DNA from: a virus
Direction: 5' to 3' (one strand)
Length of the DNA stretch: 43,894 nt
Virus record (IMG/VR): IMGVR_UViG_3300044970_001390
Coordinates: 1 to 43,894 of that record
Of the stretch, positions 3,906 through 42,408 are shown in pieces (within the stretch, counting starts at the first letter, position 1; each line of letters starts with the position of its first letter). Position numbers and translations under genes: made by a program. The notes beneath the pieces are model-generated. The model worked only from the letters and a program-made list of their open reading frames with translations, made no database searches and had not been told where the DNA came from.

Positions 3906-4148
3906 ATGAGCAACGAGTACAGGGGCTTGATTAGCGTCACGATGGTAGGCGCTCCGGTGCGGATCTCTTACCGGGTGATGTGGGGATCGCAGCCGCATAT
4001 CCTTGAGGCATACATGCGCGGGAATCTGGACATGATGACGGCGGTCGGCGGATTTCCTGACGCTGTGCGCGTGCGGATCTACGATGCCATCATCGCGGAC
4101 GTGCGCGAGCAGGAAGCGGCTAGGCTGGCCGAGCGGGCGGGCGCATGA
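3906..4148 (+). CDS. Hypothetical early protein, 80 aa
   Basis: Small soluble protein with beta-like N-terminus and a helical Ala/Glu/Arg-rich C-terminus. The ATG at 3906 follows a GGGGG-type ribosome-binding site six to eight bases upstream; the longer frame from 3882 overlaps the previous gene and lacks one. No family recognised. Coupled to the next gene by an ATGATC overlap. Confidence 0.75.
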   Translation: MSNEYRGLISVTMVGAPVRISYRVMWGSQPHILEAYMRGNLDMMTAVGGFPDAVRVRIYDAIIADVREQEAARLAERAGA

Positions 4149-4363
4149 TCCGCGAACCAAAGGACTACAGCATTGAACCGGTAACGGTCTACGTGACCGA
4201 CTGCCCGGGGCTGGAGCGAATGTTTTTTCACTCCGAGGAGCATTGCTTTGCGGCAATCGAGCGCGAGTGTATAGACGCCAACATCGCAGCCGCCGAGCTA
4301 TGCGGCGACCTGTCCTATTCAGAAGAGCAAATTGAGAAGAGACAACAGCATGATCCAAATTAG
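4145..4363 (+). CDS. Hypothetical acidic protein, 72 aa
   Basis: Acidic small protein with four cysteines at irregular spacing and a helical middle. No recognised motif. The start overlaps the previous stop, and the last 14 bases overlap the next gene. Part of the coupled early operon. Confidence 0.65.
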   Translation: MIREPKDYSIEPVTVYVTDCPGLERMFFHSEEHCFAAIERECIDANIAAAELCGDLSYSEEQIEKRQQHDPN

Positions 4364-11639: not shown

Positions 11640-12665
11640 ATGGCCGAGATCAAGCAGCTCGCTCAGGCGAATCCTCGCCTTGTCATCACCGCAGACGAGT
11701 GGCTTCGGGAGATACCGCCACCCAACTACACCGCCAAGCCCCTGTTCCAGCGCGGGCAGATCACATCCTTGGTGGCGCATCCGAATCATGGCAAGTCCAC
11801 GTTCTCTACGATGTGCGCGGTCGCGCATGTGGGCGGGCTGACCATCGGCGGCGTCAGGTTCCAGCAGGGCAACGTGCTGCTGCTGGCCGGCGACAACGCC
11901 TACAACGCCTCGCTACAGGTGAAGGCGGCGGCACTGCGCTACGGAGTCTCGCTGGAGACGCTGGGCAAGCACATGCGCGTGTACCGTGTAGATGGCGAGA
12001 TCGAGACGTGCTACGCAAAGATCCGCGCGCAGCGGGACGCGGAGAAGTGGGAGCCGTTCGTCAGTATCACTATTGATACGTTCAGCGCGTACTTTGGCCG
12101 GGAGGATGAGAACTCGAATACTCAGACGCACGAGGCCATTTCGATCATGCAGCGGTTCACGTTGCCGGAGTGGGGGAGTCCGACGGTCATAGTGAACTGC
12201 CACCCCTCGAAGGAGGCCAAGCGGGACAACATGAAGCCGCGTGGGGGCGGGGCGATATTTGGGCGGGTGGACTGCAATATGAGCCTGTGGAATGACGGAG
12301 GGATGATCGAGGTGCATTACAACAAGATCCGGGGGATTCCCTGGGAGCCAGTCACCGCTGAGCTGAGCACGCAGCAGGTTGGATTCAGCGACGGGTCCAC
12401 GACCGAGGTTTCGGTGGCGGAGATCGTCGGCATGGAGCAGGCGCATCAGATCCGCATGCAGGCGTCCAATGAGGATGCGGCGCTGCTGGATGTCATCCGG
12501 GCGCGGCCGGACCAGTCAATGAGCGAGTGGGCGCGGGCGATGGGCTGGCTGACGCCGAACGGTGCGCCGTATCACGCCAAGGTGACACGGGCGGTCAAGC
12601 GGATGGAGAAGGACGGGAAGGTCAAGCGGGACAGCAGTGGAGCGTATACCGTCAAGCGTGGATGA
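11640..12665 (+). CDS. RepA-like hexameric helicase / AAA_25 ATPase
   Basis: 341-aa P-loop ATPase of the AAA_25/RSF1010-RepA type. The Walker A-like AHPNHGKST is at residues 46-54, LLLAGDN (80-85) follows, Walker B ITIDT is at 143-147, and a conserved NCHPSKEA segment near 194-201. The last ~70 residues look like a winged helix (W..AMGW...VTRAVKRMEKDGKVKR). The likely role is replicative DNA unwinding at the phage origin. Walker A has His in place of a usual small residue. It is the last recognised gene of the rightward arm, before the 12666-13033 gap. Confidence 0.85.
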   Translation: MAEIKQLAQANPRLVITADEWLREIPPPNYTAKPLFQRGQITSLVAHPNHGKSTFSTMCAVAHVGGLTIGGVRFQQGNVLLLAGDNAYNASLQVKAAALRYGVSLETLGKHMRVYRVDGEIETCYAKIRAQRDAEKWEPFVSITIDTFSAYFGREDENSNTQTHEAISIMQRFTLPEWGSPTVIVNCHPSKEAKRDNMKPRGGGAIFGRVDCNMSLWNDGGMIEVHYNKIRGIPWEPVTAELSTQQVGFSDGSTTEVSVAEIVGMEQAHQIRMQASNEDAALLDVIRARPDQSMSEWARAMGWLTPNGAPYHAKVTRAVKRMEKDGKVKRDSSGAYTVKRG

Positions 12666-12722: not shown

Positions 12723-12958
12723 CTCCGGCGGGGATACAGACACAATGCAGTCAACCCCAAAACCAAACCCCAAAAACACGTGATTGCCGAGCCGCCGGCA
12801 TGTGTCAGAATGCGCTCACGGTGCAGCGGGGACGCGATGACCGTCACAATGCAGTGTCAGTACCTTCCTGAGCAGTACCCAAGGCCCGCTAAGCGCGGGC
12901 TTTGGCTTTTTGGGTTTGGGTTGGTTTTGGCTGCATTGTGTTTGTATCCCCCTCGGAG
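12723..12958. repeat. Long imperfect inverted repeat, arms ~52-54 bp
   Basis: Left arm 12723-12776 and right arm 12907-12958 are imperfect inverted copies. Both contain GGGGATACA, ACACAATGCAG and a CCAAAACC/CCCAAA-rich stretch in the same order (right arm read in reverse complement). About 130 bases lie between, including another CACAATGCAG and the terminator at 12884-12911. There is no ORF. It may be a MITE-like insertion, a bidirectional terminator/cruciform, or a recombination target at the left edge of the cassette array. Confidence 0.8.
12884..12911 (+). terminator. Rho-independent terminator of the rightward arm
   Basis: GCCCGC (12884-12889) pairs with GCGGGC (12895-12900) around TAAGC, followed by TTTGGCTTTTT. 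It is placed after the helicase gene and would stop early transcription before the cassette array. The right arm of the long inverted repeat begins in its T-run. Confidence 0.65.
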
Positions 12959-13011
12959 AGCGGTGATTAGCTCAGCTCAGCGGACTATGTCAATTTGGGC
13001 ATAAAGTTTGC

Positions 13012-13039
13012 GCAGGTCAGGTCGAGCGCCGGGTTAGGC
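13012..13039 (+). other. Half attC site at left edge of cassette array
   Basis: The text ending GTCGAGCGCCGG-GTTAGGC resembles the right half (L' and R' boxes) of the attC site at 13496-13552. R' is GTTAGGC (13033-13039), matching GTTRRRY. The left half is absent or too decayed to recognise (GGGCATAAAG at 12998 is a poor match). The recombination point would lie between G13033 and T13034, where cassette 1 begins. Confidence 0.7.
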
Positions 13040-13066
13040 ATGCCCGATAGACATTGGAGAGCAAAG

Positions 13067-13501
13067 ATGAAAACCGTAACGATGTACGAAGCAGAAGACG
13101 GCAAACAGTTCCGCACCGAAGCGCAGTGCGTGGAGTACGAACAGCAGTGCGTGGAGTACGAACAGCAGTGCGCCGACTTGGCCGCAGCCAATGACATGCT
13201 GGACAACGGGGGCACGTTGATGGCGGCGCTGACTCGCGCACACCAGACGCGCCCGTGGTGGGATAGTGGCCTGAGTGTTGACGACAAGGTGATCTTGATG
13301 AAGACCAACAAGGACACCGGGTTTGTCGTGAGCCACTGGCAGTGCAGCAACCGGCCCGGATACAAGCCCTGCCGGCTGAACCATGCCGGCCAGGTGAAGC
13401 TGTATGGCGACTCCGGTGGCTGGGGCGGCCCTTACGGCAACTGGGTGGGCCTGCAGGACTTGCTGCGCTACGCGCGCCAAACCGCTGCCCAGCATGCCTA
13501 A
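13067..13501 (+). CDS. Cassette 1 protein, 144 aa, function unknown
   Basis: Starts 33 bases inside the cassette with GGAGAG upstream. The N-terminus (KTVTMYEAEDGKQFRTE) is followed by an in-frame 21-base tandem duplication giving two QCVEYEQ units, then a Trp/Gly-rich C-terminal domain with several Cys and His. The stop TAA lies within the attC R'' box (GCCTAAC), as is typical of integron cassettes. I do not recognise the family. The 12995 frame start is upstream of the cassette boundary and unlikely. Confidence 0.75.
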   Translation: MKTVTMYEAEDGKQFRTEAQCVEYEQQCVEYEQQCADLAAANDMLDNGGTLMAALTRAHQTRPWWDSGLSVDDKVILMKTNKDTGFVVSHWQCSNRPGYKPCRLNHAGQVKLYGDSGGWGGPYGNWVGLQDLLRYARQTAAQHA

Positions 13502-13552
13502 CGCCCGAGGTAAGCCGCGCCGTCAGGCGTCGGCTTGAGCGAAGTGTTAGCC
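13496..13552 (+). other. attC recombination site 1 (57 bp)
   Basis: R'' GCCTAAC (13496-13502) and R' GTTAGCC (13546-13552) bound a folded core. AAGCCGCGCC (13512-13521) pairs with GGCG-T-CGGCTT (13526-13536) around a GTCA loop with one extrahelical T. The length and box layout are those of short attC sites of class-1-type cassettes. The 11 bases GCATGCCTAAC (13492-13502) are the exact reverse complement of the first bases of cassette 1 (13033-13043), showing that the cassette's ends belong together. Confidence 0.93.
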
Positions 13553-13714
13553 GGCCGGTGGAGGGCGCGAGCGATCTATGAGCGCACGAAGCCACGCAAG
13601 CCCATGCTGGTCGATCTTGGCCCACTGCGCTGGCGTGAGGCGTATGGAGCGCTGCACTAGGCGCTGGTCTTCTGGCACGGGCGGGCGACCGCCGGGGTTC
13701 TTTGGCTGTTCCAT
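13547..13714 (-). CDS. Antisense ribbon-helix-helix-like protein, 55 aa (cassette 2)
   Basis: Starts MEQPKNPGGRPPVPEDQR (ATG at 13714). A short strand VQRSIRLTP, then a helix PAQWAKIDQHG and a second helix AWLRALIDR follow. This strand-helix-helix order with a basic Pro-rich N-terminus fits small RHH-like DNA-binding proteins. It is antisense to the cassette, and its stop codon is supplied by the TTA of the attC1 R' box, so translation ends exactly at the cassette boundary. No ribosome-binding site is obvious. It might repress a promoter within the cassette. Confidence 0.6.
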   Translation of the reverse strand: MEQPKNPGGRPPVPEDQRLVQRSIRLTPAQWAKIDQHGLAWLRALIDRSRPPPAG

Positions 13715-13743
13715 GCGGCAAGTATACGTGATGCAAAAAGATG

Positions 13744-13773
13744 TTGACGTGCTGATGTTGTTGTGATTCAATA
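13744..13773 (+). promoter_or_regulatory. Possible cassette-internal promoter
   Basis: TTGACG (13744-13749) and TCAATA (13768-13773) are separated by 18 bases, about 30 bases before the ATG at 13806. The -10 match is weak. The site lies between the antisense RHH-like gene and the sense genes of cassette 2, where control by the RHH protein would make sense. Confidence 0.3.
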
Positions 13774-13805
13774 ACACCCATCGACACACCAACCGGAAGA
13801 CGCAA

Positions 13806-14000
13806 ATGCAAACCAGCTACGCAGTGATGAACAAGGCAACCGGCCAACTGTTCGCAGGCTTTGACGCTGACAACCAGCCGACGTGGACAGATGACGAGCG
13901 TAAGGCCCGCGCCTATGGCCGCAAGGAAGATGCGCGCGGCCAAGCGCTGCTGTTCATGTGCTTTGGCATCAAGGTTCAACAGAAGCCGGTGGTGTTGTGA
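13806..14000 (+). CDS. Cassette 2 sense protein A, 64 aa
   Basis: Short beta/alpha protein beginning MQTSYAVMNKATGQLFAG, with an Arg/Ala helical middle. GGAAGA precedes the ATG. Its TGA overlaps the ATG of the following ORF (TGATG). No family recognised; its location inside an attC-bounded unit shows it moved with the cassette. Confidence 0.65.
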   Translation: MQTSYAVMNKATGQLFAGFDADNQPTWTDDERKARAYGRKEDARGQALLFMCFGIKVQQKPVVL

Positions 14001-14254
14001 TGTTCAACCAAGAGCAAGCCAGTGCTCTGGCATCACTTGTGCGGCAGATCAACGAGCGCCGGGACGATGACGCCCTAACTCCGGTGTATCTGAACTTCTA
14101 TCACGCCGAAGCGTTGTGGAGCGCCATTGACGCAATGCAGAAAGAGTTGGGCCATAGGAGCAACGTGTGCGGGTGCGTGCTTGGAACTTGCCAAAGCAAG
14201 GCGGTCGGATGCCGCATGCGAGAAGAAGTGAAGCCCGGTAGTGGTGCGCAGTAA
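14000..14254 (+). CDS. Cassette 2 sense protein B, 84 aa
   Basis: Helical N-terminus (MFNQEQASALASLVRQINER), then a Cys-rich end with CGCVLGTC and a further Cys (residues ~60-71), which could bind metal. Translationally coupled to the preceding ORF; the stop ends four bases before the attC2 R'' box. No family recognised. Confidence 0.65.
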   Translation: MFNQEQASALASLVRQINERRDDDALTPVYLNFYHAEALWSAIDAMQKELGHRSNVCGCVLGTCQSKAVGCRMREEVKPGSGAQ

Positions 14255-14257
14255 GCC

Positions 14258-14327
14258 GGCTAACGTTGGAGCTAAGGCGCAGGCGCCGGTACTCCGGCTA
14301 CTGTCGCCCTTGAGCGACCAGTTAGAT
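14258..14327 (+). other. attC recombination site 2 (70 bp)
   Basis: R'' GGCTAAC (14258-14264) and R' GTTAGAT (14321-14327). The core folds as AAGGCG (14274-14279) with CGCC-C-TT (14305-14311, one extrahelical C), capped by GCCGG-TACT-CCGGC (14285-14298). GCCGGCTAAC (14255-14264) is the exact reverse complement of the first bases of cassette 2 (13546-13555). Confidence 0.92.
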
Positions 14328-14353
14328 GGCATGGTGAACGAAGGCACAGACAG

Positions 14354-15163
14354 ATGAACCGCGTAGTGTTCGGAGATTGCCGCGAAGTGATGCGCGACCT
14401 GATAGGACAGGGCGTGAAGGCGCGCATGTGCGTGACCTCGCCGCCATATTGGGGCGGGCTGCGGGACTACGGGCGCGAGGGCCAGCTTGGCTTGGAGCGC
14501 GACCCGGCCGACTACGTGGCAACGCTGGTGCAGGTGTTTCGCCTGCTGCGCGACCTGCTGACCGACGACGGCACGCTGTGGCTGAACGTGGGCGATGTGT
14601 TCGCGGCCAGCGGCAAGGGCGGGGGCGGCAACGCTGGCGACCGCACGAGCTGGGCGACGGTCCGCGAGCGCAAGGGATTCAGGATGCCGCCGGCCGGCTA
14701 CAAGATGAAAGACCTGACGCTGGTGGCGTTTGCCCTGGCCGATGCGCTGCGGCGCGATGGCTGGTACATGCGGCAGACGATCATTTGGCGCAAGCCGGCC
14801 GCGGTGGAGCCGATGCGCCTGGACCGGCCGGCGACGAGCCACGAATACCTGTACCTGCTGGCGAAGGCCGAGCACTACTACGCACGCGGCCCGGAAGGCG
14901 CAAAGTGGTGGGGACATTCGGTGTGGGACGTTGCGAGCGACAGCGACGGCCAGCACCCGGCCGCGATGCCGACCGAGCTGGCGCAGCGGTGCATCCTGTG
15001 TGGCAGCGAGCCGGGCGACCTTGTGCTCGATCCGTTCATGGGATCGGGCACCAGCGCGCGGGCGGCGGCCAGCCTGGGGCGCAACTGGATCGGGTGCGAA
15101 CTGAACGACGACTATGAGGCAATGCAGGCGCAGCGAACTGCGCAGGCGTGCTTTGCCATCTAA
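14354..15163 (+). CDS. Cassette 3: solitary beta-class DNA methyltransferase
   Basis: 269-aa DNA amino-methyltransferase (N6-adenine or N4-cytosine). The catalytic motif TSPPYW is at residues 28-33, before the AdoMet-binding DPFMGSGTS (226-234); this IV-before-I order defines the beta class. The gene has no partner endonuclease. It starts 32 bases inside the cassette, and its TAA stop lies within the attC3 R'' box (ATCTAAC). Likely role: protection of phage DNA from host restriction or epigenetic marking. Target sequence cannot be read from the protein. Confidence 0.92.
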   Translation: MNRVVFGDCREVMRDLIGQGVKARMCVTSPPYWGGLRDYGREGQLGLERDPADYVATLVQVFRLLRDLLTDDGTLWLNVGDVFAASGKGGGGNAGDRTSWATVRERKGFRMPPAGYKMKDLTLVAFALADALRRDGWYMRQTIIWRKPAAVEPMRLDRPATSHEYLYLLAKAEHYYARGPEGAKWWGHSVWDVASDSDGQHPAAMPTELAQRCILCGSEPGDLVLDPFMGSGTSARAAASLGRNWIGCELNDDYEAMQAQRTAQACFAI

Positions 15164-15269
15164 CGTGATTTATCCAGCCCGTGCAAGCTCTGCACCCCAA
15201 TGACCTACCGCCGCGCGCTTGCGGGTCAGAGGCAGTGTGGGGCGGGGCCGGGCTGGGCGCGGTCGGCTG
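15158..15269 (+). other. attC recombination site 3, degenerate right end
   Basis: TGCCATCTAAC (15154-15164) is the exact reverse complement of the first 11 bases of cassette 3 (14321-14331), so the R'' box ATCTAAC is certain. An imperfect hairpin follows: CAGCCC, CCCCA and TGACC on the left, GGTCA, TGGGG and GGGCTG on the right. No GTTRRRY box follows; GTCGGCT (15263-15269) is the nearest candidate. The right end is therefore mutated or deleted. Confidence 0.65.
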
Positions 15270-15453
15270 CAAGGGGGAGGAGTGGCCCCATTGTGTGCGC
15301 AGCTTCCGCGCCCGCCTGCGTGGAAGACCGTAGGCTACACGACAAACCAGCCGCGCGAAAGTAAACATGTCACGGCAGATGCGTATACAAAAGACGGCAA
15401 ATCTATGCGTGTTTCACATACGCGACGGTTGGGCCGCAACAGGAGCTGATGAA

Positions 15454-15642
15454 ATGATAGTGATAAACAACGACACCACAACATATCGCAAATTTGTAGT
15501 GTGGAAACCAATGATGACAGAAGACGGTTCTGCTCATGTGAGCGTATGGTTCGAGTGGATGAGCCGCTCACATAGGGATTGCGCCTCGTTTTTATGGGTT
15601 TCTGATGATGGCCGGCGCTTTGTAGAACACATTGATCATTGA
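15454..15642 (+). CDS. Cassette 4 protein, 62 aa
   Basis: Begins MIVINNDTTTYRKF. Trp-rich mixed beta protein with no recognised family. The ATG at 15454 has AGGAG eight bases upstream; the longer frame from 15367 lacks one. The local sequence is clearly more AT-rich than the phage genes, consistent with foreign origin. The stretch 15270-15453 contains no other gene. Confidence 0.65.
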   Translation: MIVINNDTTTYRKFVVWKPMMTEDGSAHVSVWFEWMSRSHRDCASFLWVSDDGRRFVEHIDH

Positions 15643-15643
15643 C

Positions 15644-15658
15644 GCTTAACTGTTAGGC
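15644..15658 (+). other. Collapsed attC remnant at right edge of array
   Basis: GCTTAAC (15644-15650) fits RYYYAAC and GTTAGGC (15652-15658) fits GTTRRRY, but only one base separates them, so the whole folded core is missing. It follows the stop of cassette 4 and overlaps the 3' end of the leftward metallophosphoesterase gene, whose stop codon is the TTA of this R' box. Confidence 0.55.
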
Positions 15659-16720
15659 CGCCTTCTTAGCCCGCAGGAACGTCAGCCACTCCGCCGCGTG
15701 CTCCACGCACCAGAATGGCTTGACGCGCTCGGCCGGCACAGGATGCCAAGGATTCAGCACGAGCGTCACTGACGGCGCCATGCGGTGCGGGATATAGCGG
15801 TTCTCATCGGCGTAGTCGTCGAGGATCTTGTACCCGCTAACGCGATACAGGTGGCTCACGTCACCGTCCACATTCGGGACGATCTGAGCCGCATCCTGGT
15901 GAATGTGTCCGCACAGCAGGATGTGGTCCATGTAGCCGAACATCAACTCCCTTCGCATGCCATGCGCGGCGTTGTACTGTGAGCGCCCAGGAAAGTCATG
16001 CCGTGTGTGGATCCGCAAGGTGCGGTCTCCGGGGAACCGCAATTCCATGCGCGCGCCGTGCGGCTGGCCGACCGTAGACGCAGCGCGAGTCATGTACGTG
16101 AGTAGTTCCGCCCCTTGCCACAGGTCGTGGTTGCCGAACACCACTGCTAGATTCGGCCGCCCCTTGAGCACCCACTCGACCAATTTATAGCTCTGACTCC
16201 GCGTGGTCATCTGATCGGCGTACTTCTTGGCCAGCCGGCCGATCCAGTTGTTCGTCAGGTCGCCCAGGTGAAGCAAGTACATGCCGGGAGTGCTGCTAGG
16301 CACGTCCAGATCGCGCTCCAGCGCACCTATATCGCAGCCGTCGTCATCGACGTGTGGATCGCCTAGCACAGTGATCGCAATGGGCTGTCGGTCCTTGACC
16401 GTCACAGGAATAAGCTGCGCCCACTTGTCCTTCGCCAGCTTGCGCTCATACAGCGACTTCTTGAGCGCCAGCAGCTCGTTGACTGATAAGTCGTCGTCCG
16501 GTGCCGCCCCGACCTCCATCTGGCGCACCGTCGAATGCTGCTTGCGGAATACTGGGTGATCCTCGCGCGTCAGCAACCCGCGCTCTATCGCAATCCTGAC
16601 CCGCGCCTCGAATGTCTTTGCGTTGACGCCCAGTTTCGCGGCCCCATCGCGCCCTCCATGCCTGCGGTACATGTCAGCCGCCTGGTGGGCCAACTCATCG
16701 GACAATCTGGGCGTAGGCAT
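15653..16720 (-). CDS. HTH plus metallophosphoesterase protein, 355 aa
   Basis: Calcineurin-like phosphoesterase with the full metal-binding set: GDPHVD (residues 120-125), GDLTNN (153-158), GNHD (196-199), H241 and GHIH (271-274). The first ~50 residues resemble a helix-turn-helix (AAKLGVNAKTFEARVR). Such proteins occur in many phage late regions; substrates (nucleic acids or phosphorylated compounds) are not established. The ATG at 16720 has AAGGAA upstream. Its last codons reach the collapsed attC, suggesting that the array landed just at its 3' end. Confidence 0.87.
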   Translation of the reverse strand: MPTPRLSDELAHQAADMYRRHGGRDGAAKLGVNAKTFEARVRIAIERGLLTREDHPVFRKQHSTVRQMEVGAAPDDDLSVNELLALKKSLYERKLAKDKWAQLIPVTVKDRQPIAITVLGDPHVDDDGCDIGALERDLDVPSSTPGMYLLHLGDLTNNWIGRLAKKYADQMTTRSQSYKLVEWVLKGRPNLAVVFGNHDLWQGAELLTYMTRAASTVGQPHGARMELRFPGDRTLRIHTRHDFPGRSQYNAAHGMRRELMFGYMDHILLCGHIHQDAAQIVPNVDGDVSHLYRVSGYKILDDYADENRYIPHRMAPSVTLVLNPWHPVPAERVKPFWCVEHAAEWLTFLRAKKAA

Positions 16721-16754
16721 CGGTCGGTATTCCTTGGTCAAAGAACGAGGCGGC

Positions 16755-17147
16755 CTATGACTCTCCGCCGTAGGCCCGCATGAGCAATTCCTCAAGCACG
16801 ACCACAACTTCGTGCTCCTTCTCATTGACGATATGCGTGTGGCCGCGCTCGTCAATGCAGGCGTCCATCAGGCTGCGCAGCCGAAGGTGCAGCATCTCGT
16901 GAATGGCGGTGGACTCCAGCGACTCCGAAGTCACCTCGCAGACGCCGAAGTGGAGTCCAACCGAGTACCTCGCCAACTTGTGCTCAGGCTCAACAGATAG
17001 CAGCGACGCCATGCAGGTCGTATCGCGCTTGTTGGCCCGGACGACGCGCCAGTCGCGCAGGTTCAGCTTCTCCCGCCACTTCTCGATGTACATGTCGAAC
17101 TCGGCAACCTGCTCGTCCGACACTGGATTGGCGTGATGTTTCGGCAT
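16755..17147 (-). CDS. HExxH putative metallopeptidase, 130 aa
   Basis: The zinc-binding motif HEMLH lies at residues 83-87 within a helix, followed by EHE (111-113) and E120, candidate third ligands, giving a small zincin-like domain. No signal peptide. Located between the lysis genes and the phosphoesterase in the leftward operon. Related small zincin-like proteins occur in other phages, with unknown substrates. The start codon overlaps the stop of the miniprotein gene at 17149-17298 (TGATATG). Confidence 0.75.
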   Translation of the reverse strand: MPKHHANPVSDEQVAEFDMYIEKWREKLNLRDWRVVRANKRDTTCMASLLSVEPEHKLARYSVGLHFGVCEVTSESLESTAIHEMLHLRLRSLMDACIDERGHTHIVNEKEHEVVVVLEELLMRAYGGES

Positions 17148-32802: not shown

Positions 32803-33780
32803 TTACGTGATGCCATGAGCCTTGGCGTTGGCGTTGGGGTTCTTCGCCACCAGCGTCCACTCGGCCAGCAGCGAGCGCCGGTCAGCGTCACCAACCTTTG
32901 CGATTTCCTGAACCTGGAAATTGCGCAGGTAAGCGATTTCCCACATGTCCATCTGGAGCGCGTAGGCGGTGTTGGCGGGCATGTAGCGCGAGAGCGTCAG
33001 CTTGTGTTGGCCGTACGGCGAAACGTACACGTCCGCGTACCCGATGATCTGGGCCGGCGACTTCGAGGCCACGTCGCGGAAGCGGGTGGCAACGCCGGTG
33101 AACGTCGAGAACTTGTTGAACGAGACGGAATCGCACAGCACGGTGTCCACGTCGCCGCCGGTAGACCACGCGGCTTGCAGAATGCCGCGCAAGTCGGCCT
33201 CGACGTAAGCGGTGGCCGAAGCGGTCCAGCTCGTGCCGACAGCGGTTGCGAACCCGTTGACGACGGCGGTCGTGGTCTGCGTGGTCTGCGAGGTCGCCTT
33301 GTAGTGCTGGCCGACGGTCAGCCAGTTCGGGACGCCAGCGGACACGCGCGCAGAGGTCGATTGCGCGGCGTTGGCCGGGTTGTTGGCAAGGCACTCAAGC
33401 TCCATGTCACGCTTGATTTCGCGGCCGGCACGGGCGACGTGGTAGGCCAAGATCTCGCGCATGCCAGCGTTGTCAATCGCGCGAGCGGTGCCGGTGACCA
33501 CGATGTCCTTGCGGCTGATCTGCGTGTAGTTGCGCAGGCGGGTCGGCAGGGTGCGGGCGGACGACGAGAAATCGTCACCTTCGATCTGCTTGTTCGCGCC
33601 AGCGGCGACAAGGCTGTCAATCAGCCACTCGTGCGTGGTCGATTTGGCGGTGGCCCGACCGGCGTTGGTCAGGAAGATGGTGTCCATCGGGGAAATGTCA
33701 TAGATGACGTCGCGCAGATCTTCGCGCAGGGCGCCACCGGACAGATCCATAGACTTCGTTGCAGCTACTGGTGCGGCCAT
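32803..33780 (-). CDS. Major capsid protein, SU10/DUF5309 type, 325 aa
   Basis: The N-terminal SGGALREDLRDVIYDISPMD and the following TPF-like LTNAGRATAKSTTHEW text, plus later RDVASKSPAQIIGYADVYVS and the C-terminal DRRSLLAEWTLVAKNPNA, match the SU10-like (HK97-fold) capsid family. The length is normal. It lies after the scaffold gene and before a strong terminator, as expected for the most highly expressed virion gene. Confidence 0.9.
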   Translation of the reverse strand: MAAPVAATKSMDLSGGALREDLRDVIYDISPMDTIFLTNAGRATAKSTTHEWLIDSLVAAGANKQIEGDDFSSSARTLPTRLRNYTQISRKDIVVTGTARAIDNAGMREILAYHVARAGREIKRDMELECLANNPANAAQSTSARVSAGVPNWLTVGQHYKATSQTTQTTTAVVNGFATAVGTSWTASATAYVEADLRGILQAAWSTGGDVDTVLCDSVSFNKFSTFTGVATRFRDVASKSPAQIIGYADVYVSPYGQHKLTLSRYMPANTAYALQMDMWEIAYLRNFQVQEIAKVGDADRRSLLAEWTLVAKNPNANAKAHGIT

Positions 33781-33783
33781 GAT

Positions 33784-34743
33784 TTACCTCATTCGTGAGA
33801 GCAGCAGTGCGGCGGCATCGTTGACGTTACCTGTCGTCTTCAGACGCGCACGGAGAGCCTTGTCTTTCACTGCTGTATTGCTATTGTTCGACGATTGCGC
33901 TCCCGGTCGAGAGATCGGCGGCGCCTTGCTGACTCGTTGATTCACTCCGGGCTTCTGGGCCTGGAGCTTGTCCCATTTGGCCGCCTTGTGAAGAGCTACT
34001 ACCACTCGGGGATCAGCCATATTGGCGATCTCATCCTTCGTGAAGCCGACGGCGACCGCCTGTTGCGCGATAGCCAGCTTGGTCTGCTCAGCGTTGAAGT
34101 TCGGGATGACCTTGTTCAGGTAGTCCTGACCGCGAGCGATGACTTCGGATTGCTGGTTCGAGCGCCAGTGGCTGTATTCGTTGTACTTGCCATTGAGCTT
34201 CTTGTCGGTTTCGGCAAGCTGCTCGGCCAGAATGTCACGATTACGGCGGTGTTCGGCGTACTCTTCGGTGGACATCTTGTACCAGTCCAATTGCTTGTAC
34301 TGTTCAATGACGCCCTCCAGACGAACCTTCTCTTTCATCTCCTGCTCAGCATAGGTGCGGAACTGAGCCTCAGCCTGAAAGAATTGGGCCTGCGCGCTGA
34401 CCTGTTCGAGCAACGCCTGCGCCTGACTAGACGTTTGCGATGCTTTGGTGGCTAGTGCGCGGTTTGCTTCAAATGCTTTCTTGAGGGATGCCGGGACCTC
34501 GTAGGTCTTGCCAAGGTGCTCCAGTTCCTCAAACTGCTCGTCGGTGGACTCTTCAGGCTGTTGGTCCTCGGCAGCCTCTTCAGGCTGACTGGGCTCGACA
34601 CCTTCGTTGTCCACAGGATCGGCGGAAGAGTCGTCCGGCGCGGGCGGGACAGGCTCTTGCGTCGATGGACCGTCGTCACCGCCAAGTGCGGCTGCGATCC
34701 GGGAATTGATTTCGCCTTCAGACTGGACTTCTGTATCCGACAT
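33784..34743 (-). CDS. Capsid scaffold protein, 319 aa
   Basis: Acidic, Pro/Glu/Ser-rich disordered N-terminus (~residues 1-75), a long coiled coil (about 90-220), and a basic C-terminal tail (ALRARLKTTGNVN), the region that would dock on capsid subunits. It lies directly before the capsid gene, with which it would assemble the prohead and then leave. Confidence 0.85.
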   Translation of the reverse strand: MSDTEVQSEGEINSRIAAALGGDDGPSTQEPVPPAPDDSSADPVDNEGVEPSQPEEAAEDQQPEESTDEQFEELEHLGKTYEVPASLKKAFEANRALATKASQTSSQAQALLEQVSAQAQFFQAEAQFRTYAEQEMKEKVRLEGVIEQYKQLDWYKMSTEEYAEHRRNRDILAEQLAETDKKLNGKYNEYSHWRSNQQSEVIARGQDYLNKVIPNFNAEQTKLAIAQQAVAVGFTKDEIANMADPRVVVALHKAAKWDKLQAQKPGVNQRVSKAPPISRPGAQSSNNSNTAVKDKALRARLKTTGNVNDAAALLLSRMR

Positions 34744-34746
34744 GCG

Positions 34747-34989
34747 TTAGTTCCTTTGCGTTGACTTAAACGACTCGACCTTGCCGTCAATGATCCACTT
34801 GGTGAATTGACGGTGTACTTGCTCCAGCAATTGCAGCGAGAGCGTCAGGTTGTGGTGCGTGGAGGTATCGCCCACCTCAGACCGCTTCATGGCAAGGATG
34901 ATCGCGGCCTCCACCGACTCAAACGCTTCCTTGACCAGCGGGTCGTCCAGAATCTGCTTTGCCCGCTCGGCACGTACACTATTGTCCAT
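34747..34989 (-). CDS. Conserved small helical protein, 80 aa
   Basis: Helical protein starting MDNSVRAERAKQILDDPLVK, with two amphipathic helices. This type is frequent upstream of scaffold genes in phages of this group; function unknown. Possibly a capsid assembly chaperone. Confidence 0.72.
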   Translation of the reverse strand: MDNSVRAERAKQILDDPLVKEAFESVEAAIILAMKRSEVGDTSTHHNLTLSLQLLEQVHRQFTKWIIDGKVESFKSTQRN

Positions 34990-35010
34990 AAGTTAGCAAG
35001 TCCTTACTCT

Positions 35011-35517
35011 TTAGTCAAGGAGCATGAGAATAATGGCCTCTTCCTCGTCTCGGAGGCGGGCCATGTACATGTGGAGAGCAAGTTCGGCTTCCTGCGCGGC
35101 AGCGGCGTATACGGCGTCCAGTTGGGCTTGGATGCGCTGGGCGAGTTCGGCGGACTCGTCAGATACGGCTTTGACGTATGGCGTATCCAGTTGGATACTG
35201 TCGAGTCTGAGCGGCTTGCGGTCGCGTCGTGCTGCGGTGCGGCGCTTGCGGACGACGGTGCGCGCATCTTCGGCGGCTTTCTGCTCAGCGACCTCGCGGG
35301 CCTGAGCGATGAGCGCGTCGGCTTCCTCGGCTGACTCGACCGCGAATACGGTCCCTTCGATCTCGACCTGTAGGCGACGCTTGGTGCGCCTGGATTTGCC
35401 GGCCCCTCTGTTTTCTGACGGTGGAGGAGCCGGGGGCTCGACGAACTCACCAAACGACCACGCAAACTCATCAAACGCAGAGGTCTTGGCGAATGCGGTT
35501 TCGCTAAAACTAGCCAC
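35011..35517 (-). CDS. Hypothetical helical protein, 168 aa
   Basis: Starts at GTG 35517 (VASFSETAFAKT), overlapping the previous stop, with GGGG upstream. An ATG at 35559 would lie deep in the preceding gene. A Pro-rich linker (EPPAPPPSEN) and a basic patch (KSRRTKRR) precede an Ala/Glu/Arg-rich helical domain. Structural or assembly role inferred from position only. Confidence 0.65.
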   Translation of the reverse strand: MASFSETAFAKTSAFDEFAWSFGEFVEPPAPPPSENRGAGKSRRTKRRLQVEIEGTVFAVESAEEADALIAQAREVAEQKAAEDARTVVRKRRTAARRDRKPLRLDSIQLDTPYVKAVSDESAELAQRIQAQLDAVYAAAAQEAELALHMYMARLRDEEEAIILMLLD

Positions 35518-36343
35518 GCCACAAGTCCCCCGCAGTGCCGTTGCCAAGCACCGCCGCACTGTTCATCAGCCGCACATTCACGTCCGCGCGGTTGGCGACT
35601 GTGAACGTGAACTGGTCGGTCGTAGACCGAATAGCCGTAATGGATGCGTTGTCCGGGACTGTGTAGCTGGCAGCCGACAAGCGCGTGCTGGTCGCTACGT
35701 CAGTGCGCGTCAGAATGGTGGCGATGTCGGCGTTGGCCGGCGCCGTGTATCCTGCGGTGGCGAGGCGCGAGCCTACCGTCACGTCCAGTTTGGTCGAGTT
35801 GGTGTCGATCTCTGTGCGGATGTCCACGGCGCTCGGCGGGGCCGTATAGCCGGCGGTAGCGAGTCTGGTGCTTGTTGCCACATCTGTGCGCGTCAGGATC
35901 GTCGCAATGTCCGCATTGGACGGAGCGGTGTATCCAGCGGCAGCGAGGCGCGTCGTGATCGCGGCGTCGAGGTTCGGCGCCACCGTGGCGTTGATTGCAC
36001 CGGCAGCAAAGCTGGCCGCTGTAATCGCGCCCGATGCCACAGTCCCAACCGTGACGTTCTCGCCCGGCAGCAGGGCAAAGACTTCTTCCCGAAGGTCAAT
36101 ACTGTCCGCACCCGAAGCAGTGATCCTTAGAACGAAATCGCCTAGCGTGTCTGTGTGCGCAGAGGTCAGGACGACGCTGTACCAACCGTTTCCACGATCC
36201 GTCACCGTGGGGGAGATTGACGCAAAAGCGCCCCCGGCCTTGCTCAGGGTAACGGCGAGCGTGGCGCCAGTGACGGGCGTTACATAGTCCGTCGAACTGA
36301 CAAGGTAGACCATCAAGTTACGCGCGGTTGATTGTTTGAGCAT
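35510..36343 (-). CDS. Repeat-containing virion protein, 277 aa
   Basis: N-terminal Ig-like beta region (residues ~1-95), then a repeat region in which ADIATILTRTDVATSTRL occurs twice and GYTAP four times with variants, each unit ~30 residues. Similar AGYTAP..N repeats occur in other phage neck/fibre proteins. Likely an elongated virion-surface or neck protein. Confidence 0.68.
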   Translation of the reverse strand: MLKQSTARNLMVYLVSSTDYVTPVTGATLAVTLSKAGGAFASISPTVTDRGNGWYSVVLTSAHTDTLGDFVLRITASGADSIDLREEVFALLPGENVTVGTVASGAITAASFAAGAINATVAPNLDAAITTRLAAAGYTAPSNADIATILTRTDVATSTRLATAGYTAPPSAVDIRTEIDTNSTKLDVTVGSRLATAGYTAPANADIATILTRTDVATSTRLSAASYTVPDNASITAIRSTTDQFTFTVANRADVNVRLMNSAAVLGNGTAGDLWRG

Positions 36344-36346
36344 CGC

Positions 36347-37771
36347 TTATCCCTTGTTCACTACGCGCGACTTGCTATACGTGTTGCCTCCACCGCCCCC
36401 GGCATAGGTGCCAGTGAACTCCGTTCCCCCCGCGCCGTACTGAATGCCCGACCGAACATCCACAACCAAGGGCTGAACCAGCGTCCCGGTGAAGTCGTTC
36501 CCGTTCGGGCCGTATGTAACGCCCGTGTCCACATCGCCGACGAGCGGATAGGTTCCACTCCCGCCCGTGGAATCCACGGCGTAGTAAGACCAAATCATTT
36601 CTACGTCGTATGTTTGGCAGGCATCCCCCGAGATCGCGCCTTCACTCCCCGCCAGGACAGCCAATCCATAGCCCGGCGTGATCTTCACCGGCAGATAGCC
36701 CCGAGAACGAATCCCCGGCATCAGATGACGCTCGAAATTCGCGCCCAAGGGCTGCGCCACCGTGGCGTTTATCTCGGGGACATAGGTTGACCGGCGAAAC
36801 AGTGTCCCTAGACGGTGTTGTGGAGCAACTGCGCTTGCCTGCGTCGTGTTCCAATCAATCAGGGCGTTCCATCGCTCTCCGACTAGACGCGACAGAAACG
36901 GGCCATCAAGCACATGGACCCCTGCCGGAGCGGGCTTTGTCGTGTCAAACGGTGTTACAGGCCCTAATGGTTCTTGATTGGTTAGTTGGTCGCTACCGTA
37001 AGCCGTTCTGCGACCTTCAAAGACTGCAATACGCCATTGCTTGTCAGTCAGCGCGGTAAGGTAGTTGTTCCTGCGACTGATCGGCAGATGCACCACGTCC
37101 ACCGCTAGCGTCACCCCCGAGCCAGTGCCGTTCAGGAGCGCAAAAGTCGCCATATCGTTATTGCGCACCGTTGGACAGAAGAAGTCCGCAACGTAGTTGA
37201 CGCCCGTGGCGACGTTCCTGATTGTGAAGTTGTAATCAAGGACCATCGGCAGGCGCACAACCGGCATGGTGAGCGCAACGCCCTCGCCCTCTTGCAGGAT
37301 GATCGAGTCGATTACAGTGCCGGTAGAGCGACGGCTAAAGACTGCGGCCGTGCCTGCGCGCGCCCCGGTGCCGTTGTAGGTCCGCGTGGCGAGACTTCCG
37401 CCCAAGGGACCGGACAGACCAAACGAAAGTTTTTCTTGGCGGAACACAGACCCCGCGCCCGTAATGCCATCGGGCCGCTCACGCAAGAGCACCTGCGAGG
37501 GTAAATCGGCGTCCGTGGTATCGCGCTTGGTGACCGTAATCGGCTCGCCGCCCGTAATGCCTGTAATGCGCAGCAGGGAAATCTCGGGAAGGTCAGCGAC
37601 GTTCCCAAGGTAGTTGCCCCCTCGGGTACGGATACGCACCATATCAATGGTCACGTAATCCTCCGGGCTCGTCGTGGCCCGGTCGAAGAAGACGCCCGCT
37701 ATCCCGTCCCGCCAATCATTGGCGGAGCCGAAGCGGGCCTCCGACATGAAAACGGAACGGGTAATTGCCAT
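36347..37771 (-). CDS. Large beta-rich virion protein, 474 aa
   Basis: Starts MAITRSVFMSEARFGS. Mostly beta text with Gly/Thr/Val, ending in a Gly-rich tail that contains paired units of the type YGPNGNDFTGTLVQP and YGAGGTEFTGTYAG. This repeat resembles fibre or collar proteins. Position between the neck and capsid genes suggests a collar or decoration fibre. Confidence 0.65.
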   Translation of the reverse strand: MAITRSVFMSEARFGSANDWRDGIAGVFFDRATTSPEDYVTIDMVRIRTRGGNYLGNVADLPEISLLRITGITGGEPITVTKRDTTDADLPSQVLLRERPDGITGAGSVFRQEKLSFGLSGPLGGSLATRTYNGTGARAGTAAVFSRRSTGTVIDSIILQEGEGVALTMPVVRLPMVLDYNFTIRNVATGVNYVADFFCPTVRNNDMATFALLNGTGSGVTLAVDVVHLPISRRNNYLTALTDKQWRIAVFEGRRTAYGSDQLTNQEPLGPVTPFDTTKPAPAGVHVLDGPFLSRLVGERWNALIDWNTTQASAVAPQHRLGTLFRRSTYVPEINATVAQPLGANFERHLMPGIRSRGYLPVKITPGYGLAVLAGSEGAISGDACQTYDVEMIWSYYAVDSTGGSGTYPLVGDVDTGVTYGPNGNDFTGTLVQPLVVDVRSGIQYGAGGTEFTGTYAGGGGGNTYSKSRVVNKG

Positions 37772-37774
37772 GCA

Positions 37775-38296
37775 TCAAGACGCAAGCGACGTAAAGATGA
37801 TTTCAGCGTCGGCAGAACCAACCGCACTCGTGCCCGTCTGCGCGATGTCAACACCTTGGACAGCACGGCACACAATCGGGTCAAGATTGCTGTTGTCTAC
37901 TCCGTAGCGGCCCCACTCGGCAAAAGGAACCAAGAGCAGCAAGTTGTTGTAACCCGCGCCCGTGGTGGTTGGTTCTTCGTTGCAAAACAGGAACGACCGG
38001 AACGTGGCGCTTGCCGTAACGGTGCGCCCGGTGCCTGCCGTCGTCGCGGCATCGAGCGCCGTTGATGTCGTGTCAAAGGCCACAGGCGTGACCGCAGAGC
38101 CCGCACTTGCCGCCGTCAGGCGACGGATCGCAAAGCCCGTGAGCACACCAGTCACAGCGGTCGTCCCGCTGTTGAACAGGTACAGCAGATAGGCGCGGAC
38201 AATGCGAGCAGATCCCGTCGCGTTAAACACGTCGATCATCGACTTGCCCGAGGCGTGCGCCGCAGCGCCTTGCCGTGCCACCCAAGTATCAGCCAT
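37775..38296 (-). CDS. Virion protein, 173 aa (possible decoration/collar subunit)
   Basis: Starts MADTWVARQGAAAHASGK; Thr/Ala/Gly-rich beta protein with a Cys-containing centre. The stop overlaps the next gene's region, and the start overlaps the end of 38296-38556. No family recognised; composition suits a capsid or collar subunit. Confidence 0.62.
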   Translation of the reverse strand: MADTWVARQGAAAHASGKSMIDVFNATGSARIVRAYLLYLFNSGTTAVTGVLTGFAIRRLTAASAGSAVTPVAFDTTSTALDAATTAGTGRTVTASATFRSFLFCNEEPTTTGAGYNNLLLLVPFAEWGRYGVDNSNLDPIVCRAVQGVDIAQTGTSAVGSADAEIIFTSLAS

Positions 38297-38556
38297 CAGA
38301 ACACTCCTACGATTTCACGAGGCTTTGGAGCCTCAAAAAGGCGGATATCGCCCAAGCCGTTCATACGGTCACCAAGCACGTTGAATTCTAACTTACCGCT
38401 AATCGCGGCTAGCTTGCCAGCTCCGTCAGGCAGCTTACGCGCCTCGTCTACTAGCCACTTCTTGAGCCACGCGACCTGATTCGGAGTCGGGCCGCGCGGG
38501 CAATCAAGCCTCCAGATGTCGCGTTCAGAATCGTAGCGCAAAGGAATGTGCTTCAT
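38296..38556 (-). CDS. Hypothetical basic protein, 86 aa
   Basis: Starts MKHIPLRYDSERDIWRLDCPRG. It has Trp/Lys-rich helical text (WLKKWLVDEARKL) and no recognised family. It follows the portal gene and is coupled to 37775-38296 by a one-base overlap. Confidence 0.62.
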   Translation of the reverse strand: MKHIPLRYDSERDIWRLDCPRGPTPNQVAWLKKWLVDEARKLPDGAGKLAAISGKLEFNVLGDRMNGLGDIRLFEAPKPREIVGVF

Positions 38557-38566
38557 GCTGGATGTC

Positions 38567-40960
38567 TCAAGTTGATACTGGACGAACGCCAGTCACGCGC
38601 CCAGATGCGTCACGGACGATTTCCTTGGGCATCGAGTTCATCTGACTGATGGACTGGACAGCCTCGGTGATGGCTTTGAGAGCATTGCTAACATCCGACT
38701 TGGACTGCATTTCGCCGTCAGAGTCATTTTTCTGGCGATCCATCTCTTCCTGCTTGATTGATAGGTCGATCTGCTTGTGGCGGTCCTGGAGGCCGATCTG
38801 CTCCTGAGCGACCTGAATCTGGCCGGACTGCTTCAACTGTTCAAGTTGGAACTGCGCGGCGGTCTCGAACTCGACCTTCCACTTGTCGAACATCTGCTTC
38901 TGCTGGAGCATCTGCGCCTCGAACTGCGAGCGCATCTGGGCGACCTGAAGCTCCTTCTGGATGCCCATTTGCTCCAGCTGCTGCTTCGACTGGGAGTCGA
39001 TCTGAGCCTTGACGATTGCGGGGTCAGGCGGCGGCGGGGGAGGCGGAGGATTGGTGGACGGATCGTTGAAGAATGCCTCGGCGTTGTTGAAGCCAGCGGC
39101 CTTCGCCATCTCGATCATCGTGCGGTAGACGTTGCCCGGATTGGTAACGCCTAGCGGGATGGTCTGCATCTGGGCCATGAAGAGCTGGCTCAGCATGGCA
39201 ATCATGCCGTCCTTGGAGCCTGTGCCGAGGCCGACAGTGATCTTCAGGTCTGTACGGTGCCGCCACTCGGACGGATTAATCACGGTCCACTTGTTGCGGA
39301 GCTTGACGGTCTCCTTCTTGCGGCCGTGCTGGAGCGTGAGGCGGTGGACGATGAGGAACAGGCGGGCGACGCCATGCGAGAAGATGCGGGCGATCATCTC
39401 GACGCGCTGGGCGGCGCTGCTGGTAAGTTGGCTGATCCCGGAGGCGGTCTTGTTGATCGCGTTGGCGTCGGTGCCTTGGAAGTAGGCGTTGATGCCGGTG
39501 CGGTTCTGGCGGCGCGAGTCGAAGAAGGAGAGCGCACCCATCGCGGACGGGAACACGTCCGGCGTGACGACTGGCATCAGTTCCTGCGGCGGCTGGCCGT
39601 CAACGCGGATGATGCCGCCGACTCTAACGTCCAACAGGTCGTCCATGTTGACACGATCCGAGACCGCGATGCGGGGCGTGTTGGACAGGTTGATGTTGTT
39701 GAGAGCCGCGCGGGTGATATTGGTGGCGATGTCCTCGATGTCCTCGACGGTCTCGGCCAGCGACATGCCGATGTGCCGGTGGGGCATCGGGATGGGCGTG
39801 ATTGAGGCGACGGGGATTTCTGGCGTCTCAGAGCGGTGGAAGATTTCGCCGCCAATCAGTACGACGTATTGAAGCTCATTGATGCCGTCTCCGTCGTAGT
39901 CGTGGCGAATCCAGACGCGGCGTACTTGGACGATGCGGGAGGCGGGATCGCCCCGGTTGCTGTCCACGCGGAGGCCGCCGGCCTGCTCGTTGAAGCGGTC
40001 GCGGGCGTCCTCCTCGGACTGCCAGCGGTCGTAGTCCTCGGACGAGCCCACGTCGTCAGGCACGTCGAAGCCGTCGGCGCGCAGCGACCCGATGGTCTTG
40101 TAGTCCCAGAACTCGAAGTAGTCGCAGTCGTCGAGTGTGAAGGATTTGGTGTCAATGGAGATCTTGGTGCGTTCGGGGGCTAGCACCTCGATGCAGACGT
40201 GGCCGCGCTCATTGGTCCGGCGGATCTGGATGTCGTGCAGGTAGGCCGGCTGCGGCGGCTGCGGAGGCGGGGGGAGTTGCGGTGGCTGGCCCGGCTGCTG
40301 AGGCTGCTGCATGGCCTGCTGCTGAGCGGCCTGCTGCATCTGCATGGCCTGCATCTCGTACTGCTGCATGGCTTGCTGATACGCCTGAGCATTCTGCTCG
40401 TTGGTCTCGTCGTCTGGCCGCTGGTCGTGGCCGACGATCTCTAGATCGGCGTCATTCAGCAGGATCGTCGCGGCGTCGTCCGAGAGGTTTTCGTACTCCT
40501 CGATCTCGGTGGACTTGCGGTCTTTCCAATAGGCGTAGACGTAGCCGTTCTTGACCGTCAGGGCGTCGTGGAACCAGTCATGGCAGATCTGGAGCCACGG
40601 ATTGCGCTGGGTGACGACGTAGTTGATGAAGTCGGATTCTTGCTCGGAGGCGGCCTCGTCTTCGGGGCCTTGGGCCTCGAACTTGGCGACCTCATCGGTC
40701 GAGCAGAAGATGCGCAGGAGCGACGGCTTGGTCCACTCGATGACCTCGAAGGTCGTCCGGTCGCGGACTTGGGACATTCCGGCGGGCGCCGGGTCGATAT
40801 TCTCGCCAAGGTAGCGGCGGATGGAGAGGGCTCGGCTGGCGCCTAGTTCGGAGTCCTGTTCGGACCCGTAGGAATTCTCTGATGCGGCTTCAATCGCGCC
40901 GAGTAGGCGGTCGTCCGCGTCGCTTTTTGATAGGCGTGCCAATTTGAGCCCCCACCGCAC
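38567..40960 (-). CDS. Portal protein, 797 aa
   Basis: Very large portal of the type used by phages with long C-terminal barrel helices. Portal-type text runs from LSIRRYLGE and RDRTTFEVIEWTKP near the start to the crown/barrel helical C-terminus, rich in Gln (about residues 640-760). A Gln/Pro-rich insertion occupies ~195-245. The annotated start is a GTG at 40960; TTG six codons on, with GGTGGGGG upstream, is a rival start. It forms the packaging and ejection channel. Confidence 0.9.
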   Translation of the reverse strand: MRWGLKLARLSKSDADDRLLGAIEAASENSYGSEQDSELGASRALSIRRYLGENIDPAPAGMSQVRDRTTFEVIEWTKPSLLRIFCSTDEVAKFEAQGPEDEAASEQESDFINYVVTQRNPWLQICHDWFHDALTVKNGYVYAYWKDRKSTEIEEYENLSDDAATILLNDADLEIVGHDQRPDDETNEQNAQAYQQAMQQYEMQAMQMQQAAQQQAMQQPQQPGQPPQLPPPPQPPQPAYLHDIQIRRTNERGHVCIEVLAPERTKISIDTKSFTLDDCDYFEFWDYKTIGSLRADGFDVPDDVGSSEDYDRWQSEEDARDRFNEQAGGLRVDSNRGDPASRIVQVRRVWIRHDYDGDGINELQYVVLIGGEIFHRSETPEIPVASITPIPMPHRHIGMSLAETVEDIEDIATNITRAALNNINLSNTPRIAVSDRVNMDDLLDVRVGGIIRVDGQPPQELMPVVTPDVFPSAMGALSFFDSRRQNRTGINAYFQGTDANAINKTASGISQLTSSAAQRVEMIARIFSHGVARLFLIVHRLTLQHGRKKETVKLRNKWTVINPSEWRHRTDLKITVGLGTGSKDGMIAMLSQLFMAQMQTIPLGVTNPGNVYRTMIEMAKAAGFNNAEAFFNDPSTNPPPPPPPPDPAIVKAQIDSQSKQQLEQMGIQKELQVAQMRSQFEAQMLQQKQMFDKWKVEFETAAQFQLEQLKQSGQIQVAQEQIGLQDRHKQIDLSIKQEEMDRQKNDSDGEMQSKSDVSNALKAITEAVQSISQMNSMPKEIVRDASGRVTGVRPVST

Positions 40961-41108
40961 CGTTCGGCCATAAAGGATGGGCCTCCTTCGCTTGCGGTGT
41001 AGAGATAGTACGTGCTAACTCCTCTAAACGCAAGAGAGCCAAGAGAACTTCATTGAGAACAATTCTCGTCTCGGCTAATTGGTTGGTAACGGATGTCAGA
41101 TTGGACAT
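40890..41108 (-). CDS. Small helical protein overlapping the portal start, 72 aa
   Basis: Starts MSNLTSVTNQLAETRIVLNE. An N-terminal helix-rich half is followed by a basic end (KKRRGRPPTRRD) typical of nucleic-acid binding. Its last 71 bases overlap the portal gene in another frame. No family recognised; the AT-hook-like RGRPP is suggestive. Confidence 0.6.
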   Translation of the reverse strand: MSNLTSVTNQLAETRIVLNEVLLALLRLEELARTISTPQAKEAHPLWPNGAVGAQIGTPIKKRRGRPPTRRD

Positions 41109-41112
41109 GGGG

Positions 41113-42408
41113 CTAGGGGATTGCCAAGTTTGGGTAGCGGATCGGCGGTGGATTCATGGATTCCGGCTTAAATCCGATGGAGAGGTAGCGGAAGGCGTCG
41201 GCCGGATGGCTCGACCAATCATGTACGGCCTTCTTGGACATGACTCCAAGCTGGTCGTTGTAGAGGTAGCGGTAGATTTTGAGCGCCTCGGTGCCAGTGT
41301 AGGTCTTCTTGGCGTCAAAGTAGCACTTTCCGAGGAACTTGCGGGCCTGTTCGATGCCCTCGGATACCGTAAGTTTGGGAACGACGCGGGTATTGCGCAC
41401 TCCCATTGACTTGAGCTGCTCTACAATGCTCATTCCGGTGCCCAGTTCTGTCTTGTCGGCGTCGTGGGGGAGCAGATGGCGCGCGTAGTTGTATGGCTTG
41501 TCCTTCAGGACTCGGACGTAATGGTCGATGGCGACGCCGCTGTTCTGGTAGAAATCGATGATCCTGACCTCACGGCCTACCTGCTGTGCAAACCAGATGG
41601 CGGTGGCGTCCCCTATACCCAAGTCCCAGGCAGTCCAGACTTCGGACCCGCGATCGTATGGCACTGAGCAGATGCGGCCCTCGGCCTGAATGGTCGCCAT
41701 CTCCTTGGCGAAGATAGCCCCCTTGATGGCGGCCTCGAAGGAGCACTCGAATTCCTGGTTGTAGGCGTCCTCGCTCATCTCGCGGCGGGCGGCCTCCAGT
41801 TCGCCGATCTCGACGATGCCAGACTGTGAGGCTTTGAGCAGCATGCTGAACCAGTCGGCGTTGTTGAACTTGGAGCCGTCTTCGGCCTCCCAGATGCCGA
41901 GGGACTTTTGGTAGACCTCGTAAAACTTGTTGTGGCCGGCGGGCGTGCCCATGAAGACGGCCCAGCCTTTGCGGTCGGCCAGTTGGGGGCGGATGATAAG
42001 GTCGAACACGCCGGGGTCGTGCTGGGCGTACTCGTCCATGATTACGCCGTCCATGTAGAGGCCCCGGAGGCGGTCGGCGTTGTCGGTCCCGTAGAGGCGG
42101 ATGCGGTTGCCGCCGGGGAGCTGGCACCAGAGTTCGGACTCGTTGTAGACGACGCCCGGCAGGACGCCGGTGAACTGCTTGATGTAGCCCCAGGCGATGT
42201 CTTTCGCTTGCGAGAGCTGAGGGGCTACGTAGGCGTACCGAGCGTCCTTCTTGCCCTCGGTCAACGCGCGCTTGATAAGGTCGTTGACAGCGGCGACAGT
42301 CTTCCCTGCGCGCCGGTGGCTGACGACGCACGCCCACCGCTTCTGGCGGTTGTGGAACGGCATGAACGCAGCGCGCGGCGAGTACGGCAGGACTATTTTG
42401 GTCGGCAC
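41113..42408 (-). CDS. terL: Terminase large subunit, 431 aa
   Basis: ATP-driven DNA packaging motor with nuclease. Walker A-like SHRRAGKT is at residues 30-37, Walker B VIMDE at 122-126, a coupling-like MGTPAG at 153-158, and the RNase H-type nuclease begins with D262 in WDLGIGDAT, closing with an acidic D404 in HPADAF. Length and order match phage TerL. It sits downstream of the small-subunit-like gene and upstream of the portal. Confidence 0.96.
   Translation of the reverse strand: MPTKIVLPYSPRAAFMPFHNRQKRWACVVSHRRAGKTVAAVNDLIKRALTEGKKDARYAYVAPQLSQAKDIAWGYIKQFTGVLPGVVYNESELWCQLPGGNRIRLYGTDNADRLRGLYMDGVIMDEYAQHDPGVFDLIIRPQLADRKGWAVFMGTPAGHNKFYEVYQKSLGIWEAEDGSKFNNADWFSMLLKASQSGIVEIGELEAARREMSEDAYNQEFECSFEAAIKGAIFAKEMATIQAEGRICSVPYDRGSEVWTAWDLGIGDATAIWFAQQVGREVRIIDFYQNSGVAIDHYVRVLKDKPYNYARHLLPHDADKTELGTGMSIVEQLKSMGVRNTRVVPKLTVSEGIEQARKFLGKCYFDAKKTYTGTEALKIYRYLYNDQLGVMSKKAVHDWSSHPADAFRYLSIGFKPESMNPPPIRYPNLAIP

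What the first reader, a model, noticed from the sequence alone, without database searches (positions are those of the whole stretch)
13033..15658. An integron-type gene-cassette array, without integrase, inside a lytic-type phage genome
Seen directly: two attC sites with correct R''/R' boxes, foldable cores and an extrahelical base (13496-13552, 14258-14327), one site with an intact left end (15158), a half site (13012-13039) and a collapsed remnant (15644-15658). The first 10-11 bases of cassettes 1, 2 and 3 are exact reverse complements of the 5' ends of their own attC sites. This is the footprint of excised circular cassettes and is very unlikely by chance three times. No integron integrase or tyrosine recombinase is visible, so this is a CALIN-like cluster. 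Established: attC cassettes move by IntI in bacterial chromosomes and mobile integrons. Inference: host IntI inserted cassettes into phage DNA, making the phage a cassette carrier between hosts.
Basis: partly seen in the sequence, partly recalled or inferred. Interest (0 to 1): 0.95.

Follow-up and report, generated by a model that had tools for sequence, protein, structure and literature searches.

The report
Backward integron gene cassettes in phages
This phage genome carries a small set of swappable genes separated by integron recombination sites; many other phages in public metagenomes carry the same kind of array, but with the recombination site facing the opposite way to its gene from the site in bacterial integrons, so the site lies in front of the gene and often contains its start signal.

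Summary
The attC sites are real. A covariance model built from 11 class-1 attC sites scores 13496-13552 at 61.9 bits and 14258-14327 at 24.6 bits, both on the MINUS strand (plus-strand score of the first: 7.2).

Phage CALINs (attC clusters without integrase) are already published (Qi 2023). New here: the system is widespread and reversed. Relatives of the flanking phosphoesterase carry arrays of up to 10 detected attC at the same locus; one attC-derived DNA pattern occurs in at least 120 stretches of viral contigs. In 72 loci read, 275 attC had their gene antisense 195 times, canonical 9 times (confident:1). Bacterial integrons gave the opposite by the same test (confident 13:2 canonical). Whole cassettes at 99.5-100% identity occur in different contigs; nine breakpoints in six comparisons fall 0-8 nt from the predicted G^TT cut. 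So the mobile unit is 5'-attC-gene-3'. Among long (>=85 nt) attC, 59 of 142 contain a Shine-Dalgarno and start codon on the gene strand, 1 on the other. No IntI was found; an integrase supplied in trans is inferred.

The parts
11640..12665 (+). AAA_25 / helicase-primase-like gene of the early operon, left flank of the array
   Evidence: PF13481 E 1.2e-15; phrog_906
13012..13039 (-). half attC (R'' and L'' side in minus polarity), left edge of the array
   Evidence: seen by eye only; below model threshold
13067..13501 (+). cassette ORF1, 144 aa, unknown function; stop codon TAA inside the R' box of attC1
   Evidence: coding score 66.9
13496..13552 (-). attC1
   Evidence: 61.9 bits minus strand
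13547..13714 (-). small ORF, 55 aa from its internal ATG, in canonical direction; stop inside attC1; similar frames in Burkholderia plasmids, unannotated there
   Evidence: weak coding score
13806..14000 (+). cassette ORF2, 64 aa, unknown
14000..14254 (+). cassette ORF3, about 84 aa, unknown; stop just before attC2
14258..14327 (-). attC2
   Evidence: 24.6 bits minus strand
14354..15163 (+). cassette gene: N6/N4 DNA methyltransferase, 269 aa; stop inside the R box at 15158
   Evidence: PF01555 E 2.5e-42; phrog_67
15158..15264 (-). degenerate attC3: R' box ATCTAAC (plus strand) intact, long stem, no recognisable R''
   Evidence: by eye and folding; below model threshold
15367..15642 (+). possible cassette ORF4, 91 aa, unknown; not supported by the codon score
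15644..15658 (-). edge of the array beside the phosphoesterase stop codon, possible hairpin-less first insertion junction CA|GTTAAGC
   Evidence: sequence; 11 bits, E 0.25; compare leading junctions of L205 and G012
15653..16855 (-). calcineurin-like phosphoesterase gene, convergent with the array; relatives flank arrays in other phages
32803..42408 (-). structural module: major head protein 32803-33780, scaffold 33784-34743, portal 38567-40960, terminase large subunit 41113-42408

Best explanation
The window holds a short integrase-less array of integron gene cassettes in a phage, and belongs to a widespread phage-borne cassette system in which attC polarity is reversed relative to the gene. 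Shown by sequence: the attC sites; gene direction opposite to attC polarity; sharing of whole cassettes between contigs with breakpoints at or within 8 nt of the predicted G^TT cut of R'. Hence, read in gene direction, the mobile unit is attC first, gene second. Read from the anatomy of the window and a few relatives: the array sits at the downstream end of the early operon, convergent with a phosphoesterase gene, so cassette genes can be read by early transcription. Shown as a sequence pattern, function inferred: many long (>=85 nt, mostly about 100 nt) attC of related phages hold a ribosome-binding site and start codon near the hairpin apex, so attC would double as a mobile 5' leader that also encodes the protein's N-terminus. 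The window's own two attC are short, and its genes start about 27 nt after them where this can be seen. Inferred, not shown: recombination is done by an integron integrase supplied in trans, for example by the host; cargo such as DNA methyltransferases helps the phage against host restriction.
For: attC model hits on the minus strand against plus-strand genes. Same locus and polarity in G011, G013, G012, G014 and in G002 (30 of 33 sites antisense). 275 sites in 72 viral-contig loci: 195 antisense, 9 canonical, 71 uncalled; confident 161:1. Controls by the same script: chromosomal integrons 20 canonical, 2 antisense, 20 uncalled, confident 13:2; class 1 9 canonical, 1 antisense, 3 uncalled (Fisher test on the site counts P about 1e-17, which overstates independence because some loci are near-identical phages). 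Exact cassette sharing: G011/G013 block of 472 bp at 99.6%, G012/G013 428 bp at 100%, 18 full-unit pairs between loci; eight breakpoints by script 2-8 nt past the cut and one by eye at the cut. Leader: 59 of 142 long attC with SD+start on the gene strand, 1 on the opposite strand, 18.2 in shuffles; none of 13 long chromosomal attC on either strand; hairpin folds with the start near the apex. Independent complete genome: MW202573 has minus-strand attC among plus-strand genes.
Against: The window's array is partly degraded: only two sites score, and the edges are by eye. No host and no integron integrase is known. No experiment. The survey loci were picked with one attC-derived pattern, so the ratio describes that attC type, not all phages. 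Gene direction rests on a codon score trained mainly on this window, with a stop-codon window and thresholds that I chose. Of the 142 long attC, more than half lack the strong SD+start signal. Close relatives without detectable attC exist (L210). Most data are metagenomic contigs, and only 25 of 50 array contigs matched the one terminase family searched.
Confidence: 0.8

Rival explanations
1. Chance capture of an ordinary bacterial cassette cluster by one phage, as in the published phage CALINs; the genes are ordinary bacterial cassettes.
For: Phage CALINs with methyltransferase cassettes are published (PMC9892861); one small ORF in the window (13547-13714, minus) is in canonical direction and resembles Burkholderia plasmid frames.
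Against: Reversed polarity in nearly all called sites of many contigs, opposite in bacterial integrons; same locus in several phages; phage-type cargo.
Confidence: 0.08
2. The hairpins are intergenic regulatory elements (terminators or translation leaders) of phage early operons that resemble attC, and are no longer or never were recombination sites; units are exchanged by homologous recombination at the shared repeats.
For: Many long sites carry SD and start codon; the sites lie between co-directional genes; no integrase on the contigs tested.
Against: Scores up to 67.3 bits with a model of class-1 attC; breakpoints at or within 8 nt of the G^TT cut rather than inside the hairpin, which homologous exchange between divergent attC would not predict.
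Confidence: 0.08
3. The recombinase is a phage-encoded enzyme of another kind, not an integron integrase.
For: Ten of 50 array contigs and G012, G014, G015 carry tyrosine recombinases.
Against: Most array contigs have none detected, though many are fragments; those tested look like varied ordinary phage integrases.
Confidence: 0.15
4. Assembly artefact: bacterial integron DNA joined to phage DNA, or contigs wrongly called viral.
For: Most data are metagenomic contigs; only 25 of 50 array contigs matched the one terminase family searched.
Against: Portal, terminase and head genes on the window contig; similar locus in several contigs from different IMG/VR records; MW202573 is annotated as a complete circular P22-like genome; bacterial integrons tested do not have this polarity.
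Confidence: 0.02

Closest known systems
CALINs in phages (Qi et al. 2023, PMC9892861)
   Same: attC clusters without integrase in phage genomes, some virulent, some with methyltransferase cassettes; several phage attC shown active with IntI1
   Different: reported as scattered cases, two of them described as typically oriented; here a widespread array with attC reversed relative to the genes, units shared between phages, and start signals inside long attC. MW202573 of that study has the reversed layout; whether its authors' figure shows this could not be seen
Class 1 and sedentary chromosomal integrons
   Same: attC sequence and structure, G^TT cut, one gene per cassette, extended R'-R'' pairing
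   Different: no intI or proven attI; gene-attC polarity opposite; attC at the 5' side of the gene
Accessory (nin-type) region of lambdoid/P22-like phages
   Same: small accessory genes near NinB/HNH genes at the end of the early operon (own knowledge; NinB)
   Different: exchange units here are bounded by attC cuts

Membership tests
CALIN | at least two attC close together without an integron integrase | tested here: met
   two attC 0.7 kb apart in the window; no TIGR02249 match
Complete integron | intI gene | tested here: not met
   no TIGR02249 or PF00589 match in the window
Complete integron | attI site | tested here: inconclusive
   hairpin-less junctions at the leading edge in the window, L205 and G012; no model for attI was run
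Standard integron gene cassette | attC with R''-L''-L'-R' structure | tested here: met
Standard integron gene cassette | gene upstream of attC and on the same strand as attC polarity | tested here: not met
   both window sites have the gene antisense; 195:9 in the survey
Standard integron gene cassette | unit bounded by G^TT cuts of R' | tested here: met
   in related phages; not tested for the window's own units, which have no close copy here
Standard integron gene cassette | excision and integration by IntI | not testable with these tools
   needs an assay; five of six other phage attC were active with IntI1 (PMC9892861)

The most novel reading that the evidence does not exclude
A widespread phage-specific class of integron cassette exists in which attC lies at the 5' end of the gene, reversed, and in its long form serves as a mobile translation leader whose translated half becomes the protein's N-terminus; phages exchange these cassettes at an early-operon locus using integron integrase supplied in trans.
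Probability: 0.65. Interest if true: 0.93.

Novelty: new variant of a known kind. Interest (0 to 1): 0.87.

Why it matters
Integron polarity is thought to serve expression of captured genes (PMC2727003). A large set of phage cassettes with the opposite polarity would separate a phage cassette pool from the bacterial one, give phages a site-specific way to swap accessory genes such as DNA methyltransferases, and make attC a dual DNA/RNA element. It is directly testable with existing attC assays and with the published genome MW202573.

Tried and rejected
Rfam gave no attC match. A home-made inverted-repeat scanner was too unspecific. Longest-ORF direction calls were ambiguous in GC-rich phage DNA and were replaced by codon scoring; the stop-codon window and score thresholds in those scripts are my choices, and other settings were not explored. 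By longest ORF the controls were 13/13 (class 1) and 36/42 (chromosomal) canonical, the phage sets mixed. A first Fisher test used a wrong table and was redone. In one search one interval start was off by one base and returned 0; the 10-nt run was read by eye. Host search with the phosphoesterase found only a distant Rhizobium protein. The helicase gene gave no relatives in viral contigs. Blast of the window's array region or of single attC sites against isolated phages found no relative of the array, only the methyltransferase gene or class-1 attC in phage P1 and one other record. No major-head-protein relative's locus showed attC, but few of those loci reach the array position; G002 does when read to its end. 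A phosphoesterase relative at 71% identity (L210) shows no attC, so the array is not universal.

Full report
What the window is. The record is a 43,894-bp linear IMG/VR virus contig with portal, terminase large subunit, scaffold and major head protein genes and recombination-type early genes. No tyrosine recombinase was found in it. Near-mode search of 18500-43000 against isolated phages found nothing.
Noticed in passing
window 12723-12775 and 12905-12960: Long imperfect inverted repeat (83% over about 52 nt) between the helicase gene and the array, with a terminator-like stretch inside; function unknown.
   Followed up: no
L329, L374, L381, L388: These loci carry attC on both strands, unlike most arrays.
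   Followed up: no
L205 and G012 (L195) leading junctions: Both share GCGATAGCTYA|GTT and then diverge, as if a hairpin-less attI-like site started the array.
   Followed up: partly
L177 5066-5644 and 7011-7772, L178 2392-3045: phrog_12600, a methyltransferase-like family of unknown function, occurs in three units of two arrays and also in isolated phages such as Pseudomonas phage Persinger.
   Followed up: partly
NZ_CP082810.1 (L183) around locus position 4001-4207: Unannotated frame in Burkholderia contaminans plasmids similar to the window ORF at 13547-13714; no attC found there.
   Followed up: partly
L319 (MW202573) 2069-2703: Published P22-like phage genome with three minus-strand attC among plus-strand genes.
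   Followed up: partly
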